A program made the translations under genes and the position numbers. From contig JAPWTS010000009.1 of assembly GCA_028275925.1 (NCBI GenBank), forward strand, positions 1 through 36,270: a stretch of DNA of 36,270 bases. The letters run 5' to 3'. This DNA is from Thermofilales archaeon. GTDB lineage: Archaea > Thermoproteota > Thermoprotei > Thermofilales > Thermofilaceae. Shown here piece by piece: positions 8,185-36,270 of the stretch (position 1 is the stretch's first letter; every line of letters starts with the position of its first letter). The notes under the pieces are model-generated. The model was not told where the DNA came from and did not search any database. It saw only the letters and a program-made list of their open reading frames with translations.

Positions 8185-10908
8185 GTGGAGGGGTCGGGCG
8201 GCGAAATAGCCGGTCCGCTAGTGAGGATCGGAGGCCTTATAGCTTTCGTTCTCGGCGTTTTCGAGGTCGTAAAGGGTTTGCTGCTTCTCGCTTTAGTTCA
8301 GGCTGCGGGTAGGCTCCTCAGCGGCGCTTGGCTCCTCAGCAGCATTTTCCCCGAGCTGGGCTGGCTCCTGAGCCTTGTCCCCGTCAGCGGAACCGCCCTA
8401 GCAGCGGCGCACATTGTTGCAGGGGCGGTGTACGCCGCGGCGGCTCGCCCGCTCATCAAGGCCCCCGTGCCGATGCCGCCTGAAGAGAGGGACAAGTGGA
8501 TAACGGTTCTAGCAGCGGTCGCCATAATCCTCAACTTACACGATCTCCTCCTAGCTTTGGGCCTCTCGCTTGCGGGTCTCCTCCTAGGCGCCGCTGAAGC
8601 AACTCAGCAGTCGGCGGAGACGCGCCCCAACCGAATGCCGCGTGCGTTCACGCGATGCGACAAGCTGCTATACTTTATTATACGGCAGTTCCGCGATTCC
8701 CCCATGCTCGCGCTGCTACTTGCGTTAGCGCTGCTGCTCTCTAGGCAGCTCTCACCGCCACCGGCCCTCTCAGAGCTGCTATGGGCGCTCGCCTTGCTGG
8801 CTTCCAACGCGAGCCTCTACGCGGCTCCGACCTTCGAGGTGAGGGAGATAGGGGGCTACCCGGTGCCGTTCCAGAACGGCGTCGTTTACCCGACATTCGG
8901 GAGGCAGCCGTCCAGGCTGTACGTCGACCTCTCCGGCGACTGGGAGCTGCTGTACGACGAGGAGGCGGGCAACGCGCGCGTCGGGGGCGTCAGGCTCTCG
9001 CTTTCCGCGAGGAGCCCGGAGGTGGTCGAGCTCCTCACCGAGCAGATGCGGAGCGCGCTGGCGAGAGGGGGCTGGAGGAGGGTGCGCGTGCCCTCCGTCA
9101 ACAACGCGCGCGGCTCGGAGATGGAGGGCTTCCAGGGCGTCGCGTGGTACAGAAAAGTCTTCGAGGTTCCGGCGGGCCTGCTGAGCGGCGGCAGGAGGGT
9201 TTTCCTGGTTTTCCACGGCGCGAACTACGTGGCTGATGTGTGGCTCAACGGCGTCTACCTCGGCTACCACGAGGGCGGCTTCACGCCCTTCGTCTTCGAC
9301 GCGACGGGCGCTCTGCGGGAGGGGGCGAACGAGCTGGTCGTTAGGGTCGACAACGTCCCGTGGGATTCTGAAGACGCCCGCTTCGTCACCGTCCCCTACA
9401 AGAAGTGCGACTGGTGGAACTACGGGGGCATCTACAGGGACGTGTACCTCGAGGCGGTCAACGCGACCTACATCGCCCGCCTGGACCTGGTGCCCCGCAA
9501 GCTCGAAGGGGGCTGGGGCCTCGAAGCCAGGGTCGTCGTCGTGAGCGCGGGCGGGGGGCGGGCCAGGCTGGAGCTCCGCGTCCACCCGGCGAGCGCCGCC
9601 GGCAGGGTGGAGCCCGACGCTCTCTCGATCGCGAACCTCTCCGAAACCGTGGTGGAGCTCTCGCGGGAGGTCGAGCTGGAGCCGGGCGTCAGCGTCGTCG
9701 CGCTGCGCGCTGAAGGTTTGAAAGCGCGCGAGTGGAGCCCCGAGAGCCCCTCCCTCTACGCTGCTGCTGCCCGGTTGGTGGAGGGCGGAGCGGTCTTAGA
9801 CGAGGTGTGGGACCAGTTCGGCTTCCGGGAGGTTAAGGCGGAGGGTTCGAGGATCCTGCTGAACGGGAAGCCCGTGTTCCTGAAGGGGGTGTCGAGGCAC
9901 GAGGACTACCCGGGGCTGGGGAGGGCGCTCCCGCCGAGCTTGATCTACGAGGACCTGCGTATCGTGAAGGAGATGGGCGCGAACTTCCTCAGGACCGCCC
10001 ACTACCCCAACCACCCGCTCACCTACGTCTACGCGGACAGGCTCGGCCTGCTCGTCTGGGAGGAGATCCCCGTCTACTGGTTCGACTGCGAGGCGCTCCG
10101 CGCCCAGCTGGCGAGGGGCGTCGCCAGGCAGATGCTGCTCGAGATGGTGTACAGGGACTTCAACAGGCCCTCCATCATCATCTGGAGCTTGGCGAACGAG
10201 TGCGGGTGCCGGGACGAGAGGGTCGCGCTGCTCAGGGACCTGGCGCAAGCGGCGCGCCGGGCGGACCCGACGAGGCTGCTCACGCAAGCGATCGCTTGGG
10301 ACCCGAGCGACGACACGACGCTGAGGGCGGGCCTCGACGTCCTGTCCGTGAACATGTACTTCGGCGTCTTCTACGGGAAGCTGGAGGACATGGACGCTGC
10401 GATCAAGGAGCTGAGGAGGAGGTACCCGAGCGTCCCGATAGTGATCAGCGAGTTCGGTTTCTGGTCGGGCGGGGGCGTGGGCGAAGCGAGGCAAGCCGAG
10501 TACTTCGCGAGGGCGTGGAAGATCATCGAGTCTAACAGGGACCTCCTGAGCGGAGCCGCCTGGTGGACCGCCTTCGACTACGACAGCATGATCGTCTTCG
10601 ACACGTTCGGCGCGCTGGACTGGCAGCGGGGGCACCGGAAGCTCCTGTTCTACGACATCAAGAGGGCGTACGAGAGCTTCCCGCCCGCCGGAGAGAGCGG
10701 GCGGGAGGGCTTCCCCTCGGCTCTGCTCCTCGCGGCGGCAGCCGCGGCCCCGCTCCTCTACGTCGCCGGGAAGGTCATAAAGAAGAAATACGGCTCAACC
10801 CAGAGGACGGGCGATGGAGAAGGAGAAGGGCGCGTTCATGAGGAAGGAGCTGGGCGAGGGCCCGCAGGCGGTCCTCAGAACCCTCCGCGAGGCTCGCGAG
10901 GAGGTTAA
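8185..10908 (+). CDS. Glycoside hydrolase family 2 enzyme, membrane anchored; long ORF with a multi-TM N-terminal extension
   Basis: The frame is open for 907 residues, but the enzyme proper probably starts at the ATG at 8704, where a TATA box lies 27 nt upstream and a signal-peptide-like MLALLLALALLL begins. Residues 1-173 (from the GTG at 8185) are about four hydrophobic helices and may be a separate membrane protein whose stop was lost, or a true fusion. The GH2 part shows LYVDLSGDW (sugar-binding domain), FLKGVSRHEDYPGLGRAL, acid/base Glu672 in SLANECG and nucleophile Glu756 in VISEFGFW. Family 2 enzymes cleave beta-galactosides, beta-glucuronides or beta-mannosides. A C-terminal helix (ALLLAAAAAAPLLYVAG) followed by KVIKKK suggests an outward-facing catalytic domain. 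The last roughly 32 residues overlap the next gene and are low complexity. Confidence 0.82.
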   Translation: MEGSGGEIAGPLVRIGGLIAFVLGVFEVVKGLLLLALVQAAGRLLSGAWLLSSIFPELGWLLSLVPVSGTALAAAHIVAGAVYAAAARPLIKAPVPMPPEERDKWITVLAAVAIILNLHDLLLALGLSLAGLLLGAAEATQQSAETRPNRMPRAFTRCDKLLYFIIRQFRDSPMLALLLALALLLSRQLSPPPALSELLWALALLASNASLYAAPTFEVREIGGYPVPFQNGVVYPTFGRQPSRLYVDLSGDWELLYDEEAGNARVGGVRLSLSARSPEVVELLTEQMRSALARGGWRRVRVPSVNNARGSEMEGFQGVAWYRKVFEVPAGLLSGGRRVFLVFHGANYVADVWLNGVYLGYHEGGFTPFVFDATGALREGANELVVRVDNVPWDSEDARFVTVPYKKCDWWNYGGIYRDVYLEAVNATYIARLDLVPRKLEGGWGLEARVVVVSAGGGRARLELRVHPASAAGRVEPDALSIANLSETVVELSREVELEPGVSVVALRAEGLKAREWSPESPSLYAAAARLVEGGAVLDEVWDQFGFREVKAEGSRILLNGKPVFLKGVSRHEDYPGLGRALPPSLIYEDLRIVKEMGANFLRTAHYPNHPLTYVYADRLGLLVWEEIPVYWFDCEALRAQLARGVARQMLLEMVYRDFNRPSIIIWSLANECGCRDERVALLRDLAQAARRADPTRLLTQAIAWDPSDDTTLRAGLDVLSVNMYFGVFYGKLEDMDAAIKELRRRYPSVPIVISEFGFWSGGGVGEARQAEYFARAWKIIESNRDLLSGAAWWTAFDYDSMIVFDTFGALDWQRGHRKLLFYDIKRAYESFPPAGESGREGFPSALLLAAAAAAPLLYVAGKVIKKKYGSTQRTGDGEGEGRVHEEGAGRGPAGGPQNPPRGSRGG
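8671..8683 (+). promoter_or_regulatory. TATA box inside the long GH2 frame
   Basis: TACTTTATTATAC is an AT-rich element in a GC-rich context, with TTTATTA centred about 27 nt before the in-frame ATG at 8704. It argues that the glycosidase is expressed from this internal start as a leaderless transcript. Confidence 0.6.
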
Positions 10909-11863
10909 AGCCGCCGCCGACCTGCTGAGGAGCTTGGCCGGCGCGGGCGTGGAGAGGGGCTTCATCATCGGGAGCGGCACGAGCTTCCACGCCAGCCTCT
11001 ACCTCCAGCACCTCCTCAACAAGCTCACCGGCTTCCACGTGACCGCGGTCCCCGCGTCGGAGTTCGCCGAGTGGAGGCCCGCCAAGCACGCGAAGTACTT
11101 CATCATCGGTTACTCGCAGTCGGGGGAGAGCAGCGACATCGTCGAAGCGTTCAAGGTGGCGAAGGCCGCCGGCGTCAAGACGATCGCGATAACGAACACG
11201 CCCGGGAGCACGCTGACCAGGATCTCCGACGCCTGCATCGTCACGAGGGCCGGCGAGGAGAAGGCGGTGGCGGCGACGAAGACCTTCGACGTGCAGCTGG
11301 CCGCCGCGCTGATGCTCGCCCACGAGCTGGCTGGAAAGCACACGGGCGAGCTGGAGAGGGCCGCCGAAGCCGCCGAAAGGGTGCTGCGCGCCGAGAGCGA
11401 GGTCCGCTCGCTGGCTGAGCGCTACGTGAAAGCCGAGCACGCGTTCAGCCTGGGCAAGGACTCCGCCTACCCCATAGCGCTCGAAGCCGCGCTCAAGCTC
11501 AAGGAGGCGGCGATGGTGCACGCGGAGGGCTTCGCGGCGCGGGAGTTCCTCCACGGCCCCGTGCAGCTGGTGGACGAGACGACGCCGGTCCTCGCTTTCG
11601 CGCCCAGCGCTGAGGCGTTCAAGGGATCGCTCAAAGCGTTCGAGAAGATCGCGCAGTACAAGGCCCCGCTCATCCTCGTCGGGCCGGGCGCCGGCGAGGT
11701 CGCCGGCTACGCCGCCCACCGGGTTGAGGTGCAGGGGGTCGAGGGGGACGCCGCTGCGATACCGCTGGTCAAGTTCGCCCAGCTCTTCGCCTACCACCTC
11801 AGCGTGCTGCGCGGCTTAGACCCCGACAAGCCCACGAAGCTGACGAAGGTCGTGAAGTACTGA
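10814..11863 (+). CDS. Double-SIS sugar-phosphate isomerase/deaminase (GlmS isomerase-domain type, GlmD-like)
   Basis: A 349-residue protein with two SIS domains, equivalent to the isomerase half of glucosamine-6-phosphate synthase without the glutaminase domain. Phosphate-binding motifs are visible: GSGTSFHAS at 53-61 and YSQSGESSD at 100-108. The second SIS domain contains LEAALKLKEAAMVHAEGFAAREFLHGP, the GlmS-like active-site region. In Thermococcus a protein of this type (GlmD) is the glucosamine-6-phosphate deaminase in the chitin pathway, so conversion of GlcN-6-P to Fru-6-P plus ammonia is the best guess. It starts inside the end of the GH2 frame (95-nt overlap), with a TATA-like GAAATACGG about 26 nt before the ATG. 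A T7 run follows the stop. It could accept amino sugar from the MurQ pathway further right in this window. Confidence 0.8.
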   Translation: MEKEKGAFMRKELGEGPQAVLRTLREAREEVKAAADLLRSLAGAGVERGFIIGSGTSFHASLYLQHLLNKLTGFHVTAVPASEFAEWRPAKHAKYFIIGYSQSGESSDIVEAFKVAKAAGVKTIAITNTPGSTLTRISDACIVTRAGEEKAVAATKTFDVQLAAALMLAHELAGKHTGELERAAEAAERVLRAESEVRSLAERYVKAEHAFSLGKDSAYPIALEAALKLKEAAMVHAEGFAAREFLHGPVQLVDETTPVLAFAPSAEAFKGSLKAFEKIAQYKAPLILVGPGAGEVAGYAAHRVEVQGVEGDAAAIPLVKFAQLFAYHLSVLRGLDPDKPTKLTKVVKY

Positions 11864-11951: not shown

Positions 11952-13022
11952 GTGTTTAAGGGGTTGCAGCAAGCAGCGGCTGGGGTGGACGCTTATACTT
12001 CGATTGGTTTACCAACCCCTATAGCCGCTTGCCGGGGTGCAGCCTCCGGTGAGGGGGTGGAGGGGGAGGACTCGTCGGGTAAACTGTTAGCGGTAGCGAC
12101 CCCCCTCGCGAGGAGCAGGGTTCTCGGCAGGTTCCTCGGCCTCGACGGGGTGCGCCTCTACCTGAAGTGGGAGGGGGCGAACCCGACGGGGACCCACAAG
12201 GACCGCGCGGCCCTCCTCCACGTCAGGAGGGCTGCGGAGCTGGGGTTCCCGGCTGTGACTGCCGGAACGTGCGGCAACTACGGCGTCGCGCTGGCCCACT
12301 ACGCTAGGGTTTTCGGGCTGAAGGCCGTCGTGTTCGTCCCGAGGGGTTACACGAACGGGCGCGTCCGCGAGATGGTGGAGCGCGGGGCCGAGGTCGTGTT
12401 CGTCGAGGGGAGGTACGAGGACGCGGTGGAAGCGAGCGTCGAGGCCGCGGAGGAGCGCGGGTGGTACGACGCCAACCCGGGCGGCCGCAACGGGGATTTG
12501 GGCATCGAAGCTTACAGCGCGATAGCTGAGGAGATCGTGGCGGAGCTCGGCGACGCCCCCTACGCGGTGGCGGTGCCGGTGGGCAACGGGACGACCCTCG
12601 CGGGCGTGTACAGGGGCTTCCTGAGGGCTTACAAGGAGGGGCTCGCGACGGGCTTGCCGAAGCTGGTGGCCGCGACCACCTCCCACGCCAACCAGCTGGC
12701 TTCGCTGTGGTTCGGCGAGAAGCTCGAGCCCGAGCGCGTGGTGGAAACGTGGGTCAACGAGCCGCTCGTGGCGCTGGAGGCGCTCGACGCGGAGCCGGCG
12801 CTGGAGGCGCTGCGCTCCACGGGCGGCCGCGTCTACACGTTCGACGACGAGGAGATGGTGGAGGCGGCTCTGCTCGTCAGGGCGCTGGAGGGCCTGCCGG
12901 CCCTGCCGGCTTCCGCCTCGGCGATCCTCGCGCTGGAGAAGCTCGCGAGGGAGGAGGGCGCCGAGGGGCCGCTCGTCGCGGTGGTGACGGGGAGGTGGCG
13001 GGGGAAGCTCCCGAGGCTCTGA
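11952..13022 (+). CDS. Threonine-synthase-like PLP (fold type II) enzyme
   Basis: Residues about 48-356 form a fold-type-II PLP enzyme of the threonine synthase group. The PLP lysine is Lys83 in GTHKDRAALLH. TAGTCGNYGVALAHYARVFG follows and VPVGNGTTLAG supplies the phosphate-binding loop. The first roughly 45 residues are not conserved in type. A TTG at 11964 or a GTG at 11983 could be the true start; the TTG lies about 25 nt after a TTTTAAA element. Family members make threonine from phosphohomoserine or eliminate amines from other beta-substituted amino acids. This one lacks neighbours of threonine biosynthesis. Its reading frame overlaps the DUF1611 gene by 28 nt, so the two are probably translated together and act on a related amino acid. 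The substrate is unknown. Confidence 0.75.
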   Translation: MFKGLQQAAAGVDAYTSIGLPTPIAACRGAASGEGVEGEDSSGKLLAVATPLARSRVLGRFLGLDGVRLYLKWEGANPTGTHKDRAALLHVRRAAELGFPAVTAGTCGNYGVALAHYARVFGLKAVVFVPRGYTNGRVREMVERGAEVVFVEGRYEDAVEASVEAAEERGWYDANPGGRNGDLGIEAYSAIAEEIVAELGDAPYAVAVPVGNGTTLAGVYRGFLRAYKEGLATGLPKLVAATTSHANQLASLWFGEKLEPERVVETWVNEPLVALEALDAEPALEALRSTGGRVYTFDDEEMVEAALLVRALEGLPALPASASAILALEKLAREEGAEGPLVAVVTGRWRGKLPRL

Positions 13023-14062
13023 TCCTGGCGGAGGGCCTCTACGCGACCACCGACGCGAAGACCGCCCACGGGCTTGTGCGCAAGAGCCTCAAGTACCGGG
13101 TCGTGGGGGTCATCGACAGCAAGCTCGCCGGGAGGGACGCCGGCGAGGTTCTCGACGGGGTGCGCAGGGGGATCAGGATCTACGCTTCGCTCGAGGAGGC
13201 TCTGCGCGAGCACCCCGGCGTCAAGTACCTCATCGTCGGCGTGGCCACGACGGGGGGTAGGCTGCCGCCCGGCTACAGGGAGGTGGTCAAGGAGGCCCTG
13301 CGCAGGGGGATCAGCGTCGTCTCGGGCTTGCACGAGTTCCTGAGCGACGACCCCGAGCTCGCGACGATCGCGAGGGAGGCGGGCGCCGAGATCGTCGACG
13401 TGCGCAAGATCTACTACGGCATGAGGGTCCACTACACGGGGAAGATGAGGGAGGTGAAGGCGCTGAAGGTGGTCGTCGTGGGCACGGACTCGGCGGTCGG
13501 CAAACGGACGACCGCCCTCATGCTGGCCGACGAACTGAACGCGCGCGGCGTGAAAACCGTGTTCGTGGGGACCGGGCAGACCGCCTGGATGCAGGGCGCG
13601 AAGTACGTGTTCGTGCTGGACAGCGTCATAAACGACTTCGTCCCGGGCGTGCTGGAGGACACCGTCTGGAGGGCGTACGTGGAGGAGAAGCCGAAGGTGA
13701 TCGTCGTGCCAGGCCAGGGCTCGCCGCTCCACCCCGTCTTCCCGGGCAGCTTCGAGATCCTGAACCTCCTGAAGCCGGAGGTCACGCTGCTCCAGCACGC
13801 GCCGGCGAGGAAGCACTTCGACGGGTTCCCCGAGTTCCCGATGCCCCCGCTCGAGAAGTTCATCAAGCTGATCGAGCTGCTCACCGACAAGCCGCCCTTC
13901 GCGATCACGCTGAACACGGAGGGGTTGGGGGAGGTGGAGAGGGTTAGGGAGGCGATCGAGAGGGAGTACGGGATACCGACCGTGGTTCCGCTGAAGGAGG
14001 GGCTCGGGAGGGTCGTGGACCTGATGCTGCGCAGCTTCCCCCAGCTGCTCGAGAGCGGCTAG
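12995..14062 (+). CDS. DUF1611 P-loop protein (DgcN-like, D-glutamate N-acetyltransferase family)
   Basis: A 355-residue DUF1611 protein. The N-terminal Rossmann-like domain (ILAEGLYATTDAKTAHGL) is followed by a P-loop domain with VVGTDSAVGKRTTALML at about 161-177, then GTGQTAWMQGA and VPGQGSPLHP. In marine bacteria and haloarchaea a DUF1611 protein, DgcN, was shown to N-acetylate D-glutamate, working with the enolase-superfamily racemase DgcA. An enolase-superfamily protein is encoded 8.5 kb to the right here. The GTG at 12995 is chosen because earlier in-frame sequence lies fully inside the PLP gene and is low complexity. Its TAG stop shares a CTAG palindrome with the stop of the opposite-strand regulator. 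The family is clear; activity on D-Glu is inference, and other amino acids are possible. Confidence 0.78.
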   Translation: MAGEAPEALILAEGLYATTDAKTAHGLVRKSLKYRVVGVIDSKLAGRDAGEVLDGVRRGIRIYASLEEALREHPGVKYLIVGVATTGGRLPPGYREVVKEALRRGISVVSGLHEFLSDDPELATIAREAGAEIVDVRKIYYGMRVHYTGKMREVKALKVVVVGTDSAVGKRTTALMLADELNARGVKTVFVGTGQTAWMQGAKYVFVLDSVINDFVPGVLEDTVWRAYVEEKPKVIVVPGQGSPLHPVFPGSFEILNLLKPEVTLLQHAPARKHFDGFPEFPMPPLEKFIKLIELLTDKPPFAITLNTEGLGEVERVREAIEREYGIPTVVPLKEGLGRVVDLMLRSFPQLLESG

Positions 14063-14805
14063 AGCGAGATCTCGTAGCCCGAGCCGCTCCTCCTCACGAT
14101 CACCTTCACCTTCTTCACTCCGGCTTTGGCGGCGCTCTCGGCCCACCCCTCGCCGAGCGCGGCCACGACGATCGCCCCCGACAGCACCCCCTTCGCCTGC
14201 TCGACGATGGTGGCGAGCGCGGGGAGCGACTCGAAGTTCCTGGTAACGCCCTTCGCGACGAGGACCCTGGTGCCCTTCTCGATCGCGTCCCTCGGCAGGT
14301 GCAGGTAGACGATCTCGCCCCTCTCGCTCGAGTGGTAGGAGGCGGAGAGCAGCTTCCCCCAGTTCACCCAAGCTCTCTCGCTGGCCGCGCAGGCGTCGGC
14401 GCCCAGCCAGTCGGCCACCACCGCCGCGAGCGCGGAGTCCCTCTCGGAGGGGGCGAGCACGAGGTCGATCTCGTCTTCGCCGAAGTGCTTCCAAGCTAGG
14501 TAGCCGACGATGTTCAGGAACCGGGGGTTGAAGAGGAGCTTCCACTCGGCCACAACCCCTTGGGGCCCGAGCACGATCTCGCGGATCGCTTTCTCGAGGA
14601 GCCTCCTCTCCTGTATCGCGTCGAGGAGCTTCTTCGCCGTGCTCCTCTCGGGGAACTGGACGTGGCTCGTGTACCTCCAGAGGACCTGCGCCGGGACACC
14701 GAGGAGCTCCTCGAGCTCCTTGAACGTGAAGACCTCCTTGAGGCCGCTGAGGAGCCTCACCGCCACGTACGAGCACTCCTTATCCTCGCTCGAGTTCGAG
14801 GGCAT
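14059..14805 (-). CDS. HTH-PRTase-like transcriptional regulator
   Basis: A 248-residue protein with an N-terminal helix-turn-helix-like region (TFKELEELLGVPAQVLWRYTS) followed by a phosphoribosyltransferase-like fold. IDLVLAPSERDSALAAVVADWLGAD is the first PRTase strand-loop. RVLVAKGVTRNFESLPALATIVEQA takes the place of the PRPP-binding loop but lacks the acidic pair (DD/ED-x-x-x-TG) needed for catalysis. Archaeal proteins of this design, such as the GfcR type, are regulators that sense phosphosugars or nucleotides. It is convergent with the DUF1611 gene, the two stops sharing CTAG. A TATA-like GCATATAATC lies about 32 nt upstream of the ATG at 14805. It may control the neighbouring amino-sugar or D-amino-acid genes, but no operator was found. 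Confidence 0.65.
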   Translation of the reverse strand: MPSNSSEDKECSYVAVRLLSGLKEVFTFKELEELLGVPAQVLWRYTSHVQFPERSTAKKLLDAIQERRLLEKAIREIVLGPQGVVAEWKLLFNPRFLNIVGYLAWKHFGEDEIDLVLAPSERDSALAAVVADWLGADACAASERAWVNWGKLLSASYHSSERGEIVYLHLPRDAIEKGTRVLVAKGVTRNFESLPALATIVEQAKGVLSGAIVVAALGEGWAESAAKAGVKKVKVIVRRSGSGYEISL

Positions 14806-21786: not shown

Positions 21787-22611
21787 GTGGGCGTAAAGTT
21801 CACGGTTTTCACGCTCGCCTTCCCCGGCTACACGGCCGAGGGGGCCGTGGAGGCTGCGGCCCGCCTCGGCTTCGACGGGGTTGACATCAGGGCGAGGGAG
21901 GACGGCCACATCTACGTGGACACCCCGAGCGAGCGCAGGAGGAGGCTGGTGGAGCTCGCTGAGAGCCTGGGGGTCGAGATAGCGAGCGTCTATTCCTACG
22001 TAGGCCGCGAGCTCGCATCCCCGGACCCCGGCGAGAGGAGGAGGGGGCTCGAGCTCCTCTCAGCGCTCCTCGACCTCGCGGTGGACCTAGGGGGCGAGTA
22101 CGTGAGGGTTTTCGCGGGGACCCGGGAGAGGACCGAAGAGAACTTCCGCAGGCTCGTGGAGTCGCTCAAGCTAGCGTGCAGGGGGGCTGAGGATAGGGGG
22201 GTGAAGATCGGCGTGGAGACGCACGGCGAGCTCGCGTACTCGGGAGCCACCTGCAGGAGGCTTCTGGAGGAGGTGGGCTCCAGCGCGCTGAGCATCGTCT
22301 ACGACGTGGCGGGGGTCTACAGGGAGGGGCTGGACCCGTTGAGCGAGCTCAAATCGCTGGGGGTCAGGGACGTGATCGCCGTCCAATTCCACGACTTCAA
22401 AAGGGAGGGGGGCGCGTGGAAGCCGGTTCTCTTGGGCGAGGGCGAGGTGCCGCACAAACCCGTGGTCGAATACCTGGTCAGCGCGGGTTACAGCGGCTTC
22501 GCGGTCTGCGAGTACGAGAAGTGGTGGCACCCGGAGCTGCCGGATCCCCTAGAGGCTCTGCCCAGGGAGCTGGCGTACGTGAAAGCCCTCTTCGGGGGTG
22601 CGCGACCGTGA
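21787..22611 (+). CDS. TIM-barrel sugar-phosphate isomerase/epimerase (xylose-isomerase-like)
   Basis: A 274-residue protein of the AP-endonuclease-2/xylose-isomerase-like barrel family. The metal ligands expected at the barrel mouth are visible: Glu144 in GVETHGE, Asp173 in VYDVAG, His202 in QFHDFK and Glu242 in AVCEYEK. Such enzymes isomerise or epimerise sugars, inosose or hydroxypyruvate, or dehydrate inosose. GTG 21787 is chosen over ATG 21763 because the TATA element overlaps that ATG and because the family begins at the first barrel strand (VKFTVFTLAFPGY). The stop overlaps the racemase start by GTGA, so the two genes are coupled. Together with the Gfo/Idh enzyme it hints at sugar or polyol breakdown, but no substrate can be given. 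Confidence 0.82.
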   Translation: MGVKFTVFTLAFPGYTAEGAVEAAARLGFDGVDIRAREDGHIYVDTPSERRRRLVELAESLGVEIASVYSYVGRELASPDPGERRRGLELLSALLDLAVDLGGEYVRVFAGTRERTEENFRRLVESLKLACRGAEDRGVKIGVETHGELAYSGATCRRLLEEVGSSALSIVYDVAGVYREGLDPLSELKSLGVRDVIAVQFHDFKREGGAWKPVLLGEGEVPHKPVVEYLVSAGYSGFAVCEYEKWWHPELPDPLEALPRELAYVKALFGGARP

Positions 22612-23726
22612 CTGTGATAAAGAGCGTGGAGGTCGTACCCCTCAAGATACCGTTCGTGAGACCCTTCAAGATCTCCAGAGGATACGTGGGGGCGCCGGGG
22701 CAGCCCGGCGACCACGTGTACGTGAAGCTCGTGACGAGCGACGGGGAGGTGGGCTGGGGCGAGGCGCGCCCCATGCCCTCTTGGATGTACGAGACCGTGG
22801 AGTCCGTTTGCACGAGCGTGGAAAGGTACCTGGCGAAGGTGCTCGTGGGGGAGGACCCCTTCAACATCAACAAGATACACGCGGAGATGGAGAGGGTCCT
22901 GGCGCCCGCCGTCACAACGGGTATGCCGTTCGCGAAGTCGGCTGTGGACATCGCGCTGCACGATCTCGTGGGGAAGCTCACGGGAGCACCGCTGCACGCA
23001 CTACTGGGGGGCAAGCTGAGAGACAGCGTCGAGATGGCGGCGCTGGTGTCCGGCGAGCCGGGCGCGGTGGCCGAGTACGCTAAGGAGCTGCGGGCGAAGG
23101 GGCACAGGTGCTTCAAGCTGAAGATCATGGGGGATCCGGAGCTGGACAGCGAGCTCGTGAGGGAGCTCAAGGAGGCGGTCCCCGAGGCGAGCTTGTGGCT
23201 TGACGCGAACCAAGCGTACACGGACTTCAAGCTCCGCCTGCTCCTGCGGAGGATCGCGGGCGTCGAAGGGGTCATCTGCCTAGAGCAGCCGGTGCCCACG
23301 TACGACTTCTTCGGCTTGCGCAGGATCGCGAGGGTGAGCCCCGTGCCGGTGGCGGTCGACGAGTCCCTCTTCTCGCACTACGACCTGCTGAAGCTGGTAC
23401 GCTTCGAAGCTCTGGACGCGCTCGTCCTCAAGGTGGCGAAGTCGGGGATCAGGCGCACGCTGAAGATCTACGCGCTGGCCGAAGCGGCGGGTCTCAGCTG
23501 CTTGGGCAGCGGGATGACCGAGAGCGGCGTCGGGCTCGCAGCGTCGATCCACGTCTTCTCGACGCTCGATCTCGCGGCTCCCGTCGACACTAACGGCCCC
23601 CAGTTCCTCAAGGACCTCCTGGTGAGGGGGCTCGGGATCGAGGGTGCTAGAGTGAAAGTCCCCAGCAAGCCGGGCCTCGGGGTGGAGGTGGACGAGAGGA
23701 AGCTGGAGGAGTACAGGGTTCGGTGA
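22608..23726 (+). CDS. Enolase-superfamily racemase/epimerase (MLE subgroup; dipeptide-epimerase or DgcA type)
   Basis: A 372-residue protein of the muconate-lactonising subgroup. Two lysines face each other across the active site: Lys172 in the FKLKIMG (KxK) motif and Lys278 in LKVAKSG. Magnesium ligands are Asp199 (LDANQAY), Glu226 (LEQPVP) and Asp251 (AVDESLF). The paired lysines are the hallmark of racemases, epimerases and cycloisomerases. L-Ala-D/L-Glu epimerase, N-acylamino-acid racemase and the N-acetyl-D-glutamate racemase DgcA belong here. The GTG at 22608 overlaps the upstream stop. With a DUF1611 protein also encoded in the window, handling D-glutamate or peptidoglycan dipeptides is a good hypothesis, yet a lactonase or sugar-acid role cannot be excluded. 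Confidence 0.82.
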   Translation: MTVIKSVEVVPLKIPFVRPFKISRGYVGAPGQPGDHVYVKLVTSDGEVGWGEARPMPSWMYETVESVCTSVERYLAKVLVGEDPFNINKIHAEMERVLAPAVTTGMPFAKSAVDIALHDLVGKLTGAPLHALLGGKLRDSVEMAALVSGEPGAVAEYAKELRAKGHRCFKLKIMGDPELDSELVRELKEAVPEASLWLDANQAYTDFKLRLLLRRIAGVEGVICLEQPVPTYDFFGLRRIARVSPVPVAVDESLFSHYDLLKLVRFEALDALVLKVAKSGIRRTLKIYALAEAAGLSCLGSGMTESGVGLAASIHVFSTLDLAAPVDTNGPQFLKDLLVRGLGIEGARVKVPSKPGLGVEVDERKLEEYRVR

Positions 23727-31526: not shown

Positions 31527-32222
31527 GTGGCCGCGATGGTCAAGCTGATGGTCGTGGGCGCGCACGCGGGCGACGCCGAGGTCACGTGCGGCGGCCTCAT
31601 CGCGAAGCTCGCGCGGGCCGGCCACGAGGTCGTCATCGTCCACATGACGCTGGGGGAGAGGGGGCACCCGAAGCTCTCGGAGGAGGAGTACGCGGCCCAG
31701 AAGCGCAGGGAGGCTGAGGAGGCGGCGAGGATCCTGGGCGCCAAGCCGGTCTTCCTGCCCTACAGGGACGGGGAGCTGCCGGTGAGCGGCGAGGTGAAGT
31801 TCCGGCTCTGCGACCTGATCAGGGAGTACAGGCCCGAGATCCTGGTCACCCACTGGAGGGGCAGCATCCACAGGGACCACAGGAACACGTACAGGAACGT
31901 GGTGGACGCGCTCTTCTACGCGGCCCTGCCGGCCGTCAAGCGCGAGAAGCCGGCCCACCGGGTCCGCAGGGTTTTCTTCGCGGAAAACTGGGAGGACCCG
32001 CGCGGCTTCCGCCCCAACGTCTACGTGGACATCAGCGACGCGTTCGAGGTGTGGAGGGAGGCGGCGAGCGCTTACGCGTTCGCCAGGGGGGAGACCGGCT
32101 TCCCCTACATCGAGTACTACACCTGCCTCTTCAGGATCAGGGGGATCGAGTCGGGCTTCAAGTACGCTCAAGCGCTGATGGCCCCCAGCGAGCAGCTGAG
32201 GCAGGTGCTGAGGGAGCTCTAG
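31527..32222 (+). CDS. PIG-L-family (LmbE-like) N-deacetylase
   Basis: A 231-residue zinc-dependent deacetylase of the PIG-L/LmbE family. The first metal motif is normally AHPDDE and here reads GAHAGDAE (His13, Asp16, Glu18), which keeps the metal-binding residues but replaces Pro-Asp. The second motif, SIHRDHRNTYR, carries His115 and His118. Length is near the family norm of 220-270. Known substrates are GlcNAc-containing compounds: GlcNAc-PI, mycothiol and bacillithiol precursors, and diacetylchitobiose in Thermococcus. In the present context GlcNAc, GlcNAc-6-P or MurNAc-derived sugar is a reasonable guess. GTG 31527 or ATG 31536 may be the start. It is convergent with namZ, and their stop codons share the palindrome CTAG at 32219-32222. 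Confidence 0.85.
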   Translation: MAAMVKLMVVGAHAGDAEVTCGGLIAKLARAGHEVVIVHMTLGERGHPKLSEEEYAAQKRREAEEAARILGAKPVFLPYRDGELPVSGEVKFRLCDLIREYRPEILVTHWRGSIHRDHRNTYRNVVDALFYAALPAVKREKPAHRVRRVFFAENWEDPRGFRPNVYVDISDAFEVWREAASAYAFARGETGFPYIEYYTCLFRIRGIESGFKYAQALMAPSEQLRQVLREL

Positions 32223-33442
32223 CCGAGCGGCAGCGAGCGCGGCTCGTACAGCAGCACGCCTTTCTCCGCGGCCTTCTCCAGGTAGCGCCTCCGCTCCCTC
32301 CTCCAGCGCTCCTCCGCCCCCTCCACGTCGGCGCGGCCCTCGATGCACTCCCTAACCTCGCTCGTGCCGGCCAGGTAGTCGATCACGTACCTGCTCGCCC
32401 CCGTCGACCAGGCGGTGTAGTCCTTGACGTACTCGACCTCGCGCTCCGCCTCCCTCGTCAGCAGCTCGAACTCCCCGTACATCTCCCTGATCCTCCGCAG
32501 GATCCTGACGAACGCGGTGAAGGGCTTGAACGTGCTCCGGTCCACCACGTGCACGTAGACGCCGCTGACGAGCTGCCCCCTGTACTTGCTGGCGGTGGGG
32601 ACGAACTTCACTGGCCTGAACGCGGCGCCGGGGATCCCCTCCTCGTTGAGGGCGCGCGCCAGCTTCCTCGCTTTAACCCATGGGGCGCCGAACTGGAGGA
32701 AGGGTGAGGCGGTGCCGCGCCCCTCCGATAGGTTCGTGCCCTCGAGCATGCACGCGCCAGCGTACACTAGCGCTGTCTCGAGGTTCGGGATGTTCGGCGA
32801 CGTGGGGATCCAGGGGAGCCCCGTCTCGTCGAACCACATGCTGCGCCGCCACCCTTCGAGCTCGAGCACCCGCACCTCGCAGTTCAACCCCTCCACCCTC
32901 GAGTAGTAGAGGGCCAGCTCGCCGGGCGTCAGCGCGTACCTCGCCGGGATGCTCGCAACCCCCACGAAGGACCTGTACTCCGGCTTCAGCACCGGCCCCT
33001 CGGTGGCAACGCCGGTGAGCGGGTTCGGCCTGTCCAGCACGAGGAGCGGCACCCCCGCTTTCGCGCAAGCCCTCTCGACGTAGTACAGCGTAGAAACGTA
33101 GGTGTACCAGCGGAGGCCCAGATCCTGGACGTCGTAGACGACGAGGTCCAGCTTCTGCAGCTCCTCAACGGGCGGCTCGAGGTTTTCGCCGTAGAGGCTG
33201 TAAACCCTCACCCCGAACTCCCCGTCGAAGCCCGAGCGGACGAACTCGCCGGCGGCAGCGGCGCCCCACAGGCCGTGCTCGGGCGTGAAGACGACCTCGA
33301 CGCGCGCGTGCTCCCCAGCGACCTCGACGATGTGCTCCATCGACGAGTTGAAGCTGGTCTGGTTCGCGACGAGGCCGACCCGCCTCCCCCGCAGCGCGCG
33401 CGCCAGCTCCTCCCTCCTGTCCGCCCCCAAGCCGACCCTCAA
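32219..33442 (-). CDS. namZ: NamZ-type exo-beta-N-acetylmuramidase (DUF1343/YbbC family)
   Basis: A 407-residue DUF1343 protein. Conserved blocks appear in order: RVGLVANQTSFNSSMEH, VVFTPEHGLWG, a VRVYSLYG strand, DLVVYDVQDLGLRWYTYVST, LLVLDRPNPLTG and the following Gly-x-Val-Ala-Ser segment. SPNIPNLETALVYAGACMLEGTNLSEGRGT comes next. NamZ of Bacillus and Tannerella cleaves terminal MurNAc from the non-reducing end of peptidoglycan chains and is linked with MurQ in bacterial MurNAc recycling. The start is the TTG at 33442, overlapping the murQ stop (TTGA); the longer open frame upstream is antisense to murQ. No signal peptide is visible, so it would act inside the cell on imported fragments. 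It is the last gene of a three-gene operon. Confidence 0.88.
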   Translation of the reverse strand: MRVGLGADRREELARALRGRRVGLVANQTSFNSSMEHIVEVAGEHARVEVVFTPEHGLWGAAAAGEFVRSGFDGEFGVRVYSLYGENLEPPVEELQKLDLVVYDVQDLGLRWYTYVSTLYYVERACAKAGVPLLVLDRPNPLTGVATEGPVLKPEYRSFVGVASIPARYALTPGELALYYSRVEGLNCEVRVLELEGWRRSMWFDETGLPWIPTSPNIPNLETALVYAGACMLEGTNLSEGRGTASPFLQFGAPWVKARKLARALNEEGIPGAAFRPVKFVPTASKYRGQLVSGVYVHVVDRSTFKPFTAFVRILRRIREMYGEFELLTREAEREVEYVKDYTAWSTGASRYVIDYLAGTSEVRECIEGRADVEGAEERWRRERRRYLEKAAEKGVLLYEPRSLPLG

Positions 33443-34383
33443 CCCCTCCCACCCTTCAGCTTCTTCGCCAGCTCTATGGCCCTCGTCGGGATGTAGTTGG
33501 CCTGCTTGAGCAGCTCGACCGCCTCCCTGTAGCCGACGCCGGCCACCGCCATGACGATCGCGGCCGGCACGTCGTACCCGGCCTCCTCGAGGATCCGGGA
33601 GGCCTCCTCGTAGCTGACGCCTGCCTCCATCATGATTATCCTCTTCGCCCTCTCCCTCAGCTTCTGGCTGACGGGCTGGAGCGCGACCATCAGGTTCCCG
33701 TACACCCTCCCCAGCTTCACCATGACCGCCGTGCTCAGCATCGTCAAGACCATCTTCTGCGCCGTCCCCGCTTTCATCCTCGTCGAGCCCGTGATCACCT
33801 CCGGCCCCGTCTTCACCACCACCTTGATGTCTGCGTACTCGGTTGCGGGCGAGTTCTCGACGCACGTTATGATGGCCGTCTTCGCGCCCACGCTCTTCGC
33901 GTACCTCAAGGCCGAGACCACGTAGGGCGTCCGCCCGCTCGCGCTAATCCCGACCACCACGTCCTTCTCGCAGAGCCTCCTCGCCTTCAGCTCCCGCACC
34001 GCCATCTCCTCGTCGTCCTCGGCGCCCTCGATCGGCCTCACCATCGCCCCCGGGCCCCCCGCCACCAGCGCCTCCACCACCTCGGGCCCCACGTCGTACG
34101 TTGAGAGGAGCTCCGCCACGTCGATCGCAGCCAGCCTGCCGCTCGTCCCAGCGCCCACGTAGATCCAGCGGCCCCCGCTCCTCACCGCTTCGACGATCGC
34201 GTCGACGAGCTTCGCGATCTCCGGCAGAGCCTTCTCCACCGCGTAAGCCACCTTCTTGTCCTCCTCGTTGATCACCCTCAGTATCTCGATCGTATCCATC
34301 TCGCTGAGCCGCTCGCTGGCCGGGTTCCTCTGCTCCGTCTCGAGCTTCGAGAGGAGCTCGAAGACCGACCGCTCGCCCGTCAC
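33439..34383 (-). CDS. murQ: N-acetylmuramic acid 6-phosphate etherase
   Basis: A 314-residue MurQ. It removes the lactyl group from MurNAc-6-P to give GlcNAc-6-P and D-lactate. The family signature TEQRNPAS lies at 16-23. GAGTSGRLAAIDVAELLSTYDVGP contains the catalytic Glu91, and EGAEDDEEMAV contains Glu122. These match Glu83 and Glu114 of the E. coli enzyme, with the same 31-residue spacing. VVVGISASGRTPYVVSALRYAKS and GPEVITGSTRMKAGTAQK are also intact. Bacterial GuaB-like fusions are absent. The GTG start overlaps the kinase stop (GTGA). Archaeal genes of this type are unusual, since Archaea have no muramic acid. The protein is catabolic, so its presence implies a bacterial cell-wall substrate. 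Confidence 0.95.
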   Translation of the reverse strand: MTGERSVFELLSKLETEQRNPASERLSEMDTIEILRVINEEDKKVAYAVEKALPEIAKLVDAIVEAVRSGGRWIYVGAGTSGRLAAIDVAELLSTYDVGPEVVEALVAGGPGAMVRPIEGAEDDEEMAVRELKARRLCEKDVVVGISASGRTPYVVSALRYAKSVGAKTAIITCVENSPATEYADIKVVVKTGPEVITGSTRMKAGTAQKMVLTMLSTAVMVKLGRVYGNLMVALQPVSQKLRERAKRIIMMEAGVSYEEASRILEEAGYDVPAAIVMAVAGVGYREAVELLKQANYIPTRAIELAKKLKGGRG

Positions 34384-35348
34384 GGCGCCTCGGCGGTCGG
34401 CAGCGGAGGCGGTATTTCAACCTTCACCCTCTCCAGCTCCTCAGGCCCCAGCCCTTTCAGGGAGAGGTAGTGGAGGACACAGCCGGCCAGCGCGGGCGTC
34501 TCGCTCAAGCGGAACATCCTGCCCTTCGCCTCCACGAGCCTCTTCAGCGCCTCGGCCAGCGGCTTGCACCCGAGCAGGGCGCCGCCCGTCCCGTAGACGG
34601 TGGGAGGCTCCTCGAAGCCGAGCCGCCGCTCGACGGCCGACACCATCCGCTCGAGCTCCCGCGCAGCCTCCTCGATGACCCGCGAGGCCGCCTCGCACCC
34701 CAGCACCGCGGCCTCGCAGGCGAGCTTGGCCAGCTCGGCCGTCTTGCTCGGCGCCGCGTACTCCCTGTACAGCTTCCCCACCGCCTCCTCGACCGTCGAA
34801 GCTCCCAGCCGCCGGAGCAGCAGGTCCACGAGCTCGCCGCACTCCTCCCTCCCGTCGTAGCAGGCGAGGGTCCGCCGAACCAGCTCCCTCCCGATCCAGT
34901 AGGCGCTGCCCTCGTCGCCGAAGATGTAGCCCCAGCCGCCCGCCCTCGCGGCCCTACCCCTCCTCCGGCCGTAGGCGAAGGAGCCGGTCCCCGAGGAGAC
35001 GACGATCGCGTCCCTGCCGCGGGCGGCTGCCATGTACACGGCTTCGATGTCGGTGAGCAGCCAGACGCGCGCCCCCAGCTCTCTCTCGAGCAGAGCCTCC
35101 ACCTCCCCCCTGAAGGCCGAGACCCCGGCCAGGCTGAGCACGTAGCCGGCCGCGCGCCCCCCGCAGAGCTCCAGCGCGGGCCGCAGGAGGGCTCTGAGGT
35201 TCCTCAGGAAGCTCTCACGCCCCAGCGCCGCGTAGTTGAGGGGAGGGCCTGCGAACGACGCGTAAACCCTCGCCTCCCCGTCGAAGACGAGCGCCCTCGA
35301 GCCGCTGCCGCCCCCGTCCACTGCGATCAGCAGCTCCCCGCCGCCCAC
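34380..35348 (-). CDS. BadF/BadG-type sugar kinase (GlcNAc/MurNAc kinase-like)
   Basis: A 322-residue ASKHA-fold ATPase of the BadF/BadG/BcrA group, which contains N-acetylglucosamine kinase and MurK, the GlcNAc/MurNAc kinase. Phosphate-1 is LIAVDGGGSGSRALV, phosphate-2 is VVSSGTGSFAYGRR, and the signature GGWGYIFGDEGSAYWIG follows. The adenosine motif is VYGTGGALLGC at about 265-275. It is the first gene of the kinase-murQ-namZ operon, with a GTG start 25 nt from a TATA box shared with the divergent gene. Its place before murQ makes MurNAc the most likely substrate, so it would supply MurNAc-6-P without a phosphotransferase system. GlcNAc is the alternative. Cys-rich stretches are few, so it is not a benzoyl-CoA reductase activator. 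Confidence 0.88.
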   Translation of the reverse strand: MGGGELLIAVDGGGSGSRALVFDGEARVYASFAGPPLNYAALGRESFLRNLRALLRPALELCGGRAAGYVLSLAGVSAFRGEVEALLERELGARVWLLTDIEAVYMAAARGRDAIVVSSGTGSFAYGRRRGRAARAGGWGYIFGDEGSAYWIGRELVRRTLACYDGREECGELVDLLLRRLGASTVEEAVGKLYREYAAPSKTAELAKLACEAAVLGCEAASRVIEEAARELERMVSAVERRLGFEEPPTVYGTGGALLGCKPLAEALKRLVEAKGRMFRLSETPALAGCVLHYLSLKGLGPEELERVKVEIPPPLPTAEAP

Positions 35349-35367
35349 GCGGCTCGCGCGCGCTGCC

Positions 35368-35377
35368 GATTTATATC
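35368..35377. promoter_or_regulatory. Shared bidirectional TATA box of the MurNAc operon and the AmiE-like gene
   Basis: GATTTATATC is near-palindromic and centred on 35372.5, exactly midway between the minus-strand GTG at 35348 and the plus-strand GTG at 35397. Both genes would be leaderless. Confidence 0.65.
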
Positions 35378-35396
35378 GCTGACCCCCCTGCCGCCC

Positions 35397-36270
35397 GTGC
35401 TGCCGAGCGGGAAGCCGGAGGAGCTCGGCTTCGACCCCGAGAGGCTGGAGCTCGTCGACCGCCTCGTCCAGCGGCTCGTCGACGCGGGCTGCTTCCCCGG
35501 AGCCGTCCTGCTGGTGGCGAGGCGCGGCAGGATCGCGTACTTCAAGGCCTTCGGCTACGCGCAGCTCTACCCGGAGCGCCGGCCCATGACGTTAGAAACC
35601 GTGTTCGACCTCGCCAGCCTGACGAAGGTGGTGGCCACCACGCCCGTGATCCTGAGGCTCGCGGAAAAAGGCGAGCTGAGCTTGGACGACCCGGTCTCGC
35701 TTTACTTCCCAGCGTTCGGCGAGGGGCCGAAGAGGAAGGTGACGGTCTGGCACCTCCTCACCCACACCTCCGGCCTCCCCGCCTACGCCCCGCTCTACTC
35801 GCTCCTCGGGAGGAGGGAGGACGCGTACGGCTACATCGCGGGGCTCAACCTGGAGTACGAGCCGGGGACGAAGGTCGTGTACAGCGACCTCGGCTTCATC
35901 CTGCTGGGCAGGATCGCCGAGCTGGTCGCGGGGAAGCCGCTCGACGAGCTCGCGAGAGAGCTCGTGTTCGAGCCGCTGGGGATGAGGGATACAATGTTCA
36001 ACCCGCCGCCCGAGCTGAGGGAGAGGGCCGCGGCCACCGAGTACTGCAGGCTGAGGAAGCGGATCCTGAAGGGCGAGGTCCACGACGAGAACGCGTGGTT
36101 CATGGGCGGCGTCGCAGGGCACGCGGGCCTCTTCTCCACCGCCCGCGACCTCGCCCTCTACGCCCAAATGTGGCTGAACAAGGGTACATTCGGCGCGAGG
36201 GTGCTGAGCCCCGCTACGGTGGATCTCGCGACGCGGAACCACACCCAGGGACTTAACGAGTGCAGGGGCT
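35397..36270 (+). CDS. Serine beta-lactamase-fold hydrolase, AmiE-like (3' truncated by window edge)
   Basis: The visible 291 residues are the N-terminal part of a class C beta-lactamase/penicillin-binding-protein-like hydrolase. The catalytic Ser74 and Lys77 are in ASLTKVVATT. The second motif is YSD at 162-164, where beta-lactamases have YAN or YSN. HLLTHTSGLPAY and MRDTMFNPPPE are typical of the family. No signal peptide is seen. In Bacillus subtilis a protein of this fold, AmiE (YbbE), is the N-acetylmuramyl-L-alanine amidase encoded with murQ and namZ. Here it is divergent from the kinase-murQ-namZ operon and shares its promoter, which supports the same role. Esterase or D-aminopeptidase activity is also possible. 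The gene runs off the right edge. Confidence 0.82.
   Translation, partial: MLPSGKPEELGFDPERLELVDRLVQRLVDAGCFPGAVLLVARRGRIAYFKAFGYAQLYPERRPMTLETVFDLASLTKVVATTPVILRLAEKGELSLDDPVSLYFPAFGEGPKRKVTVWHLLTHTSGLPAYAPLYSLLGRREDAYGYIAGLNLEYEPGTKVVYSDLGFILLGRIAELVAGKPLDELARELVFEPLGMRDTMFNPPPELRERAAATEYCRLRKRILKGEVHDENAWFMGGVAGHAGLFSTARDLALYAQMWLNKGTFGARVLSPATVDLATRNHTQGLNECRG

What the first reader, a model, noticed from the sequence alone, without database searches (positions are those of the whole stretch)
12995..14062. DUF1611 (DgcN-like) protein coupled to a PLP enzyme
The DUF1611 gene overlaps a threonine-synthase-like gene by 28 nt. DUF1611 proteins include DgcN, the D-glutamate N-acetyltransferase. 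With an enolase-superfamily racemase in the same window, D-glutamate from peptidoglycan could be epimerised and used. The coupled PLP enzyme has no clear role in this scheme and may mark a different amino acid.
Basis: partly seen in the sequence, partly recalled or inferred. Interest (0 to 1): 0.6.

Follow-up and report, generated by a model that had tools for sequence, protein, structure and literature searches.

The report
Uncharted amino-acid operon behind "threonine synthase"
Two overlapping genes of a heat-loving archaeon, one of them labelled threonine synthase in databases, are the core of an unstudied enzyme operon shared by many archaea and bacteria that probably builds a small modified amino-acid or peptide molecule, not the D-glutamate-recycling pair first suspected.

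Summary
A DUF1611 gene (12995-14062) overlaps a fold-type II PLP-enzyme gene by 28 nt. The coupling is conserved: 55 of 69 scorable pairs overlap. The D-glutamate reading is not supported. The protein scores 159 bits against a DgcN cut-off of 480 and lies in a separate DUF1611 clade. The window's enolase is muconate-cycloisomerase-like, lacks the DxD signature and is not co-distributed. MurQ is not co-distributed either.

What is there instead is a conserved module: PLP enzyme, DUF1611 clade A, and an unannotated QueC/QatC-like PP-loop protein ('gene C', AlphaFold pLDDT 95). A GNAT (archaea) or a creatininase domain plus dipeptide epimerase (bacteria) may follow. Among 398 Thermoproteota genomes, full-length gene C occurs in 17, all within the 19 with clade A. 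In the window's genome gene C is cut by a contig end. The PLP enzyme passes NCBI's 'threonine synthase' equivalog, yet its family lacks homoserine dehydrogenase (0 of 17) and its active-site signature differs.

Best guess: biosynthesis of an acylated or amidated amino acid or small peptide. Substrates are unknown.

The parts
11952..13022 (+). Fold-type II PLP enzyme, labelled 'threonine synthase' (NF004996); likely true start GTG 12057; PLP lysine K83 of this ORF
12995..14062 (+). DUF1611 protein of clade A (PF17396 Rossmann + PF07755 P-loop); partner of the PLP enzyme
12995..13022 (+). 28-nt overlap of the two reading frames (translational coupling inferred)
13481..13510 (+). P-loop GTDSAVGKRT (residues 163-172) of the DUF1611 protein; R171 and T172 are in 78 of 78 module members
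14059..14805 (-). HTH/phosphoribosyltransferase-like protein (PRK08558-like, 99 bits against cut-off 184), a recurrent neighbour of the module in Thermofilaceae; possible regulator (inferred)
10814..11863 (+). SIS-domain sugar-phosphate isomerase/deaminase-like protein upstream of the pair; also upstream of the pair in G006 (L035); membership of the pathway doubtful

Best explanation
The two genes are the core of a conserved, uncharacterised multi-enzyme operon, not a D-glutamate salvage pair. Its constant parts are (1) a fold-type II PLP enzyme, misnamed threonine synthase; (2) a clade-A DUF1611 protein; (3) a QueC/QatC-like PP-loop protein ('gene C') expected to activate a carboxylate with ATP and form an amide. 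Optional parts are a GNAT acetyltransferase (archaea), and a creatininase domain plus a dipeptide epimerase (bacteria). Most likely mechanism (inferred): the PLP enzyme makes or converts an unusual amino acid; DUF1611 acylates or ligates its amine (CoA- or ATP-dependent); gene C amidates or couples its carboxyl group; the epimerase and amidohydrolase adjust the resulting dipeptide. The product would be an N-acylated and/or amidated amino acid or small peptide. Shown: anatomy, conserved coupling, co-occurrence, predicted fold of gene C, divergence from DgcN and ThrC. Inferred: direction of the pathway, all substrates, and the order of steps.
For: Adjacency: of the best 80 loci kept out of 459 relatives of DUF1611 clade A, 59 have the PLP enzyme beside DUF1611 (59 of 76 where the upstream flank is held) and 65 have gene C directly next to it. 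In bacteria 18 of these loci carry a creatininase domain and 18 a downstream same-strand enolase. Co-occurrence in 398 Thermoproteota genomes: clade-A DUF1611 in 19; full-length gene C in 17, all among the 19; NF004996 over cut-off in 18 of the 19 plus 3 others; 0 of 12 clade-B DUF1611 genomes have either. Fisher p is 5e-28 and 4e-27 without correction for kinship; four families are involved. The window's own genome has the first 54 residues of gene C at the very end of a 23,438-base contig. Gene C model (pLDDT 94.9): best PDB matches are QatC (Z 14.3, 303 residues), QueC (Z 13.6) and Cap9 (Z 13.3, rmsd 2.6); it has an invariant SGGK loop and four invariant Cys. All 19 enolases of PLP/gene C loci carry KxK and DLD, the dipeptide-epimerase pattern (meaning of DxD recalled). 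In G367 the PLP enzyme and a divergent gene C (hhalign 98.8%) stand beside a D-Ala-D-Ala-ligase-like ATP-grasp::GNAT fusion instead of DUF1611.
Against: No substrate, product or activity was tested. 21 of the 80 loci lack the adjacent PLP enzyme (4 of them because the contig ends), and some Thermoplasmata loci have DUF1611 + C without it. G001 has the pair but no gene C match. In the window's genus gene C is not next to the pair. G101, G122 and G367 carry the PLP enzyme without clade-A DUF1611. GNAT is absent from the near-complete genomes of genus g7. The 80 loci were chosen by similarity to sequences that sit beside the PLP enzyme, so that adjacency count is biased; the 398-genome count is not. 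A catabolic direction is not excluded.
Confidence: 0.45

Rival explanations
1. DgcN-like D-glutamate N-acetyltransferase: the protein acetylates D-Glu (perhaps from peptidoglycan) and an enolase-superfamily racemase inverts it; the PLP enzyme is incidental.
For: Same family and fold as DgcN 7xrj (Z 30.0, 321 residues); shared residues GTDxxxGK, TGQT, D209, D214-F215, E221, G240-Q241. The DgcN/DgcA pathway was described in bacteria and halophilic archaea (title of Yu et al. 2023, seen only as a reference in PMC12363236; PMC10030869 not held). Some bacterial relatives in the wider clade pair DUF1611 directly with a dipeptide epimerase (8 rows).
Against: 159 bits vs cut-off 480; separate clade; changed residues beside the TGQT motif; window enolase lacks DxD and is not co-distributed; MurQ not co-distributed, p 0.28; constant linkage to a PLP enzyme and a PP-loop ligase that the scheme does not need.
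Confidence: 0.15
2. Clade-A DUF1611 is an ATP-dependent amide/peptide ligase of the BioD/CTP-synthetase type, not an acetyltransferase; GNAT is the acetyltransferase of the operon.
For: P-loop domain's nearest non-DUF1611 structures are CTP synthetase (Z 14.6) and dethiobiotin synthetase (Z 14.1), then HypB and cyclic-2,3-diphosphoglycerate synthetase (Z 13.6). GKRT is kept in 78 of 78 module members, while DgcN reads GKMY and most clade-B rows GKNV. In G367 a peptide-ligase ATP-grasp::GNAT fusion stands where DUF1611 (+GNAT) stands elsewhere.
Against: The one characterised relative is an acetyl-CoA-dependent acetyltransferase (names of 7xrj and of NF041892; biochemistry recalled, not read). 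A shared fold shows no function. TM0796 also has GKRT. G367 is a single case.
Confidence: 0.2
3. The PLP enzyme is an ordinary threonine synthase and the overlap with DUF1611 is incidental.
For: Passes the NF004996 equivalog cut-off; ThrC chains are its best PDB matches. Some genomes of the family hold thrB-like kinases.
Against: No homoserine dehydrogenase in 17 of 17 genomes of the family. G029 has a separate ThrC-like gene beside a thrB-like gene plus a homoserine dehydrogenase. In 71 module PLP enzymes ThrC Thr88 is Tyr in 63 and Phe in 4, and at Arg160 the commonest letters are Q, D, S (65 of 71) (that these bind phosphate is recalled). Scores are bimodal: 314-480 bits in 21 genomes, at most 207 elsewhere.
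Confidence: 0.07
4. The module degrades bacterial cell-wall peptides together with the NamZ/MurQ/kinase genes on the same contig.
For: MurQ and NamZ at 32-35 kb of the window; in G101 and G122 the PLP enzyme lies next to a kinase and MurQ.
Against: Near-complete genomes of genus g7 with the full operon have no MurQ; overlap 3 of 13, p 0.28. An ATP-using amide-forming enzyme is unexpected in a purely degradative route.
Confidence: 0.08

Closest known systems
DgcN (D-glutamate N-acetyltransferase; NF041892, PDB 7xrj) and the DgcN-DgcA pathway
   Same: Same two-domain DUF1611 architecture, shared motifs GTDxxxGK / TGQT / GQG; enolase-superfamily dipeptide-epimerase-like partner in bacterial operons
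   Different: Far below the family cut-off, separate clade, other residues around the presumed active site, constant partners are a PLP enzyme and a PP-loop ligase; no linked epimerase in the archaeal module loci or the window
Threonine synthase (ThrC) / NF004996 'PRK06381'
   Same: Fold-type II PLP enzyme, PLP lysine and overall alignment over about 300 residues
   Different: Conserved TCGN(Y/F)G loop instead of STGNT, no Arg160 equivalent among the commonest letters, present without the homoserine branch; the NF004996 name looks wrong for this subfamily
QueC / QatC / Cap9 (PP-loop amide-forming enzymes; PMC13329287 parts 1-2 and passages, PMC13279940 passages)
   Same: Gene C has the same predicted core fold, SGG(K) loop, four zinc-type Cys and, like QatC, N- and C-terminal extensions
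   Different: QueC substrate motifs are not evident (the region after the P-loop reads NESGxHW); not recognised by PF06508 above cut-off; no qatABCD or CBASS partners; linked to DUF1611 and a PLP enzyme
N-acetylglutaminylglutamine-amide type osmolyte synthesis (recalled)
   Same: GNAT + peptide ligase + PP-loop amide former, as in the G367 variant
   Different: Different enzyme families; product unknown; comparison rests on memory

Membership tests
DUF1611 (PF07755 + PF17396) | Both Pfam domains over gathering score | tested here: met
   213 vs 25 and 108.6 vs 22.6 bits
DgcN equivalog (NF041892) | Score over curated cut-off 480 | tested here: not met
   159.2 bits; a bacterial module member scores 144.9
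DgcN equivalog (NF041892) | Groups with DgcN in a family tree | tested here: not met
   91-row clade, SH-aLRT 100, stem 1.3, apart from 7xrj; reference branches are long
DgcN equivalog (NF041892) | Acetyl-CoA:D-Glu N-acetyltransferase activity | not testable with these tools
   assay needed
DgcN-DgcA pathway | Linked epimerase of the DgcA/dipeptide-epimerase type | tested here: not met
   none adjacent in the window; enolase at 22416 scores 102.8 vs 400 for DgcA and reads VDTN where the others read DLD
Threonine synthase (NF004996) | Score over curated cut-off 266 | tested here: met
   387.1 bits
Threonine synthase (functional) | Residues at ThrC positions 88 and 160 (phosphate site, recalled) | tested here: not met
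   Tyr/Phe in 67 of 68 rows with letters; Q/D/S commonest at 160
Threonine synthase (functional) | Homoserine branch present in the genome | tested here: not met
   PF00742 in 0 of 17 genomes of the family; control rings in 14 of 14; window genome 95% complete
QueC superfamily (gene C) | PP-loop and QueC-like fold | tested here: met
   predicted model
QueC (PF06508) | Pfam score over cut-off 22 | tested here: not met
   best 14.2 bits among 7 gene C proteins
Qat/CBASS defence | Match to defence models | tested here: not met
   no PADLOC match at E 0.01 for 5 proteins

The most novel reading that the evidence does not exclude
A previously undescribed pathway, shared by archaea and bacteria, makes a small D-amino-acid-containing or amidated peptide. 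A threonine-synthase lookalike supplies the unusual amino acid, clade-A DUF1611 is an ATP-dependent ligase of the BioD/CTP-synthetase type rather than an acetyltransferase, and a new QueC/QatC-like family forms the amide. It would be a small-molecule counterpart of the QueC-type conjugation chemistry known from anti-phage defence.
Probability: 0.2. Interest if true: 0.8.

Novelty: new variant of a known kind. Interest (0 to 1): 0.6.

Why it matters
A curated name ('threonine synthase', NF004996) is probably wrong for a widespread subfamily, and 'DgcN-like' would be wrong for its partner. The operon joins three enzyme families, two of them poorly understood, in Thermofilum, Thermococcus, Thermoplasmata, Acidobacteriota, Deltaproteobacteria and others. 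It adds a QueC-like family with a metabolic context. The window's family of archaea, which lacks homoserine dehydrogenase here, keeps the module in most of its genomes, so the product may be something these cells cannot scavenge. The module is compact enough to reconstitute in vitro.

Tried and rejected
D-glutamate/peptidoglycan scheme: tested by family cut-offs, tree, specific residues, enolase signature and co-distribution; not supported.

MurL as a relative of gene C: considered because MurL adenylates its substrate (PMC5808125, passages). No MurL model appeared among Pfam matches up to E 10, but whether that library holds a MurL model was not checked, so this stays open.

Direct sequence search of PDB with one gene C protein: nothing up to E 10; the profile gave only weak PP-loop matches. 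Gene C on plasmids: no match. Window enolase and GNAT as constant partners: rejected by distribution. Literature: searches for DUF1611, PF07755, COG3367, TM0796, PRK06381 found two papers with one passing mention of DUF1611 each, seen only in the listing; dipeptide epimerase + creatininase + threonine synthase + PP-loop found nothing relevant; the library lacks most subscription papers, so 'not in print' is limited to these searches.

Rows dropped: two duplicate loci (L026 = L048; L033 = L049) were left out of the tree, which has 102 rows with 3 reference fragments, and of the residue comparison. L064 and L106 were left out of the gene C set for stops near the end; of the 61 sequences left, 48 were aligned.
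Full report
OBSERVATION. The DUF1611 reading frame is real. ORF 12707-14062(+) has an in-frame GTG at 12995, inside the last 28 nt of the PLP-enzyme ORF 11952-13022(+). The DUF1611 protein matches both Pfam halves strongly, the upstream protein matches PALP and passes NCBIfam NF004996 'threonine synthase' (387 vs 266 bits). Close homologues of the PLP enzyme start at the residues encoded from GTG 12057, so the ORF start at 11952 is probably too early. The DUF1611 GTG start is plausible: within the same family the overlap is 19-31 nt with GTG or ATG starts, elsewhere mostly 4 nt or 16-22 nt; 55 of the 69 pairs with an assignable start overlap (71 pairs examined).

NOT A CONVINCING DgcN. NF041892 scores 159 against a cut-off of 480. 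In PDB the sequence relatives are TM0796 (2g0t), DgcN-25328 (7xrj) and Ava_3511 (2obn). A tree of 102 rows (quick method, SH-aLRT only, reference branches long) puts the window in a clade of 91 rows (support 100, stem length 1.3) that excludes those references and the crenarchaeal DUF1611s which adjoin an enolase ('clade B'). Residue comparison (78 module rows, 8 bacterial rows that adjoin only an epimerase, 8 clade-B rows, 3 references) finds shared GTDxxxGK, TGQT, D209, D214-F215, E221 and G240-Q241, but clade-A-specific S166, R171, T172, W198, Q200, N213, P250, E254, Q267 and D276. The 8 epimerase-only bacterial rows share most of these, so part of the wider clade works with an epimerase and no adjacent PLP enzyme. 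The AlphaFold model of the window protein (pLDDT 95) matches the three DUF1611 structures (Z 30-38); its P-loop half next matches CTP synthetase, dethiobiotin synthetase, HypB and cyclic-2,3-diphosphoglycerate synthetase (Z 13.6-14.6). A shared fold does not show function.

THE PLP ENZYME IS PROBABLY NOT THREONINE SYNTHASE. No homoserine dehydrogenase domain was found in any of the 17 genomes of the window's family (control positive in 14 of 14). Homoserine-kinase-like proteins do occur in some of them (G001 and G016 over cut-off; the window genome's copy passes NF002288.1), but not over cut-off in the near-complete genomes G009 and G011-G015. This side is mixed, since imported homoserine could be used. 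G029 has the module PLP enzyme plus a separate ThrC-like gene next to a thrB-like gene and a homoserine dehydrogenase. Aligned with three ThrC chains, 71 module enzymes keep the PLP lysine (68 of 68 rows with letters), and have an invariant Cys (window C107, 68 of 68), Tyr or Phe for ThrC Thr88 (67 of 68) and Q, D or S as the commonest letters at ThrC Arg160 (65 of 71). That the two ThrC residues contact phosphate is recalled. NF004996 scores in 398 genomes fall in two groups, 314-480 bits in 21 genomes and at most 207 bits otherwise.

THE MODULE. They come from Thermofilum, Thermococcus, Methanodesulfokora, Nitrososphaerota, Thermoplasmata, Acidobacteriota, Deltaproteobacteria, Calditrichota, Bacteroidota, Planctomycetota and others. 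In these 80, 59 have the PLP enzyme next to DUF1611 on the same strand (4 of the 21 without it are cut by the contig end) and 65 have a third gene, here gene C, directly next to it. Gene C is about 450-500 aa in archaea; in many bacteria it continues into a creatininase domain (PF02633, 229 bits in L107) and is followed by an enolase of the dipeptide-epimerase type (best PDB match 3rit). 18 loci have the creatininase domain and 18 a downstream same-strand enolase. Several archaeal loci have a GNAT next. The survey was seeded with module members, so it is biased towards them.

UNBIASED CO-OCCURRENCE. In 398 Thermoproteota genomes drawn evenly, clade-A DUF1611 (at least 51% identical to L055) is in 19, clade B (at most 47%) in 12, full-length gene C in 17, and NF004996 over cut-off in 21. 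All 17 gene C genomes are clade-A genomes, and 18 of 19 clade-A genomes have the PLP enzyme; the exception, G003, has DUF1611 at a contig end. None of the 12 clade-B genomes has gene C or the PLP subfamily. Two more genomes gave short weak gene C matches (29-30%, G109, G130). G101, G122 and G367 have the PLP subfamily without DUF1611. Fisher p-values are 5e-28 and 4e-27, but the genomes are related: the carriers fall in four families. In the window's own genome gene C is visible only as its first 54 residues, ending one base before the end of a 23,438-base contig. Its neighbour there, an asparaginase-2-type protein, resembles the one in G002 and G006, where gene C is followed by the GNAT (read from the sequences; the G002 copy matched). 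So in the window's genus the module is split over two places; G001 shows no gene C at all.

GENE C. 48 aligned proteins share an SGGK loop and four invariant cysteines. The model (pLDDT 94.9) matches QatC of the qatABCD anti-phage system over 303 residues (Z 14.3), QueC (Z 13.6, 13.4) and Cap9 (Z 13.3, rmsd 2.6). QueC and Cap9 join a carboxylate to ammonia or an amine with ATP, and QatC is proposed to do so (PMC13329287 parts 1-2, PMC13279940 passages). Gene C scores below Pfam's QueC cut-off, has no PADLOC match, and the QueC survey paper does not mention PF07755, creatininase or threonine synthase in its main text. Its substrate is unknown; the QueC motif YxQxHxxE is replaced by NESGxHW, so 7-deazaguanine is not an obvious substrate (my reading of the sequences).

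CLUES TO CHEMISTRY. All 19 enolases found in PLP/gene C loci have KxK and DLD, the pattern of dipeptide epimerases; so do 13 of 13 enolases adjoining other DUF1611 genes, while the window's enolase reads VDTN. In G367 the PLP enzyme and a divergent gene C (hhalign probability 98.8) are followed by a D-Ala-D-Ala-ligase-like ATP-grasp fused to a GNAT domain (PF07478 129 bits, PF00583 26.1 vs 20.7), and no DUF1611 was found in that genome at the threshold used. This suggests that DUF1611 (with GNAT) does what a peptide ligase with GNAT can do. It is one case.

AGAINST THE CELL-WALL SCHEME. MurQ occurs in 14 of 97 relatives but in only 3 of 13 clade-A genomes (p 0.28). The window enolase's close orthologues are in G036, G030, G027, G007, G008 and G088, none of them clade A; 5 of the 7 genomes with it, the window's included, have MurQ (p 5e-4). 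So the enolase may go with the cell-wall sugar genes, not with DUF1611. For the other side: in G101 and G122 the PLP enzyme lies beside a kinase and MurQ.

VERDICT. The pair belongs to a widespread, uncharacterised operon with a new QueC/QatC-like member, most likely biosynthetic for an acylated or amidated amino acid or small peptide. The operon is well supported; the chemistry is inference.

Noticed in passing
window 32222-35348 (-) and 34470-36270 (+): An archaeal cluster of NamZ (exo-N-acetylmuramidase), MurQ (TIGR00274 335 vs 302 bits), a BadF/NagK-like kinase and a PBP4B/beta-lactamase-like protein, suggesting use of bacterial peptidoglycan sugars by an archaeon; MurQ is in 14 of 97 relatives.
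   Followed up: partly
window 22416-23726 (+): Muconate-cycloisomerase-like enolase whose close orthologues occur with MurQ in 5 of 7 genomes that have it (p 5e-4, uncorrected).
   Followed up: partly
window 14059-14805 (-): HTH/phosphoribosyltransferase-like protein next to the module in nine Thermofilaceae or related loci and divergent from it in L139 at 29% identity; could be its regulator.
   Followed up: no
L136 5973-9820 (G101) and L138 (G122): The PLP enzyme without DUF1611 lies beside a BadF-type kinase and MurQ.
   Followed up: partly
L141 4523-5575 (G000:C24): Homoserine-kinase-like gene (NF002288.1 221 vs 194 bits) in a genome without detectable homoserine dehydrogenase; substrate unclear.
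   Followed up: no
L060-L096 (Thermoplasmata loci): The module lies near a D-aminoacyl-tRNA deacylase gene in 19 of 77 loci examined and near a synthetase-like gene that I read as valyl-tRNA synthetase in 18; this may be plain synteny.
   Followed up: no
L137 5186-6868 (-) (G367): Ddl-like ATP-grasp fused to GNAT next to the PLP enzyme and a divergent gene C.
   Followed up: partly
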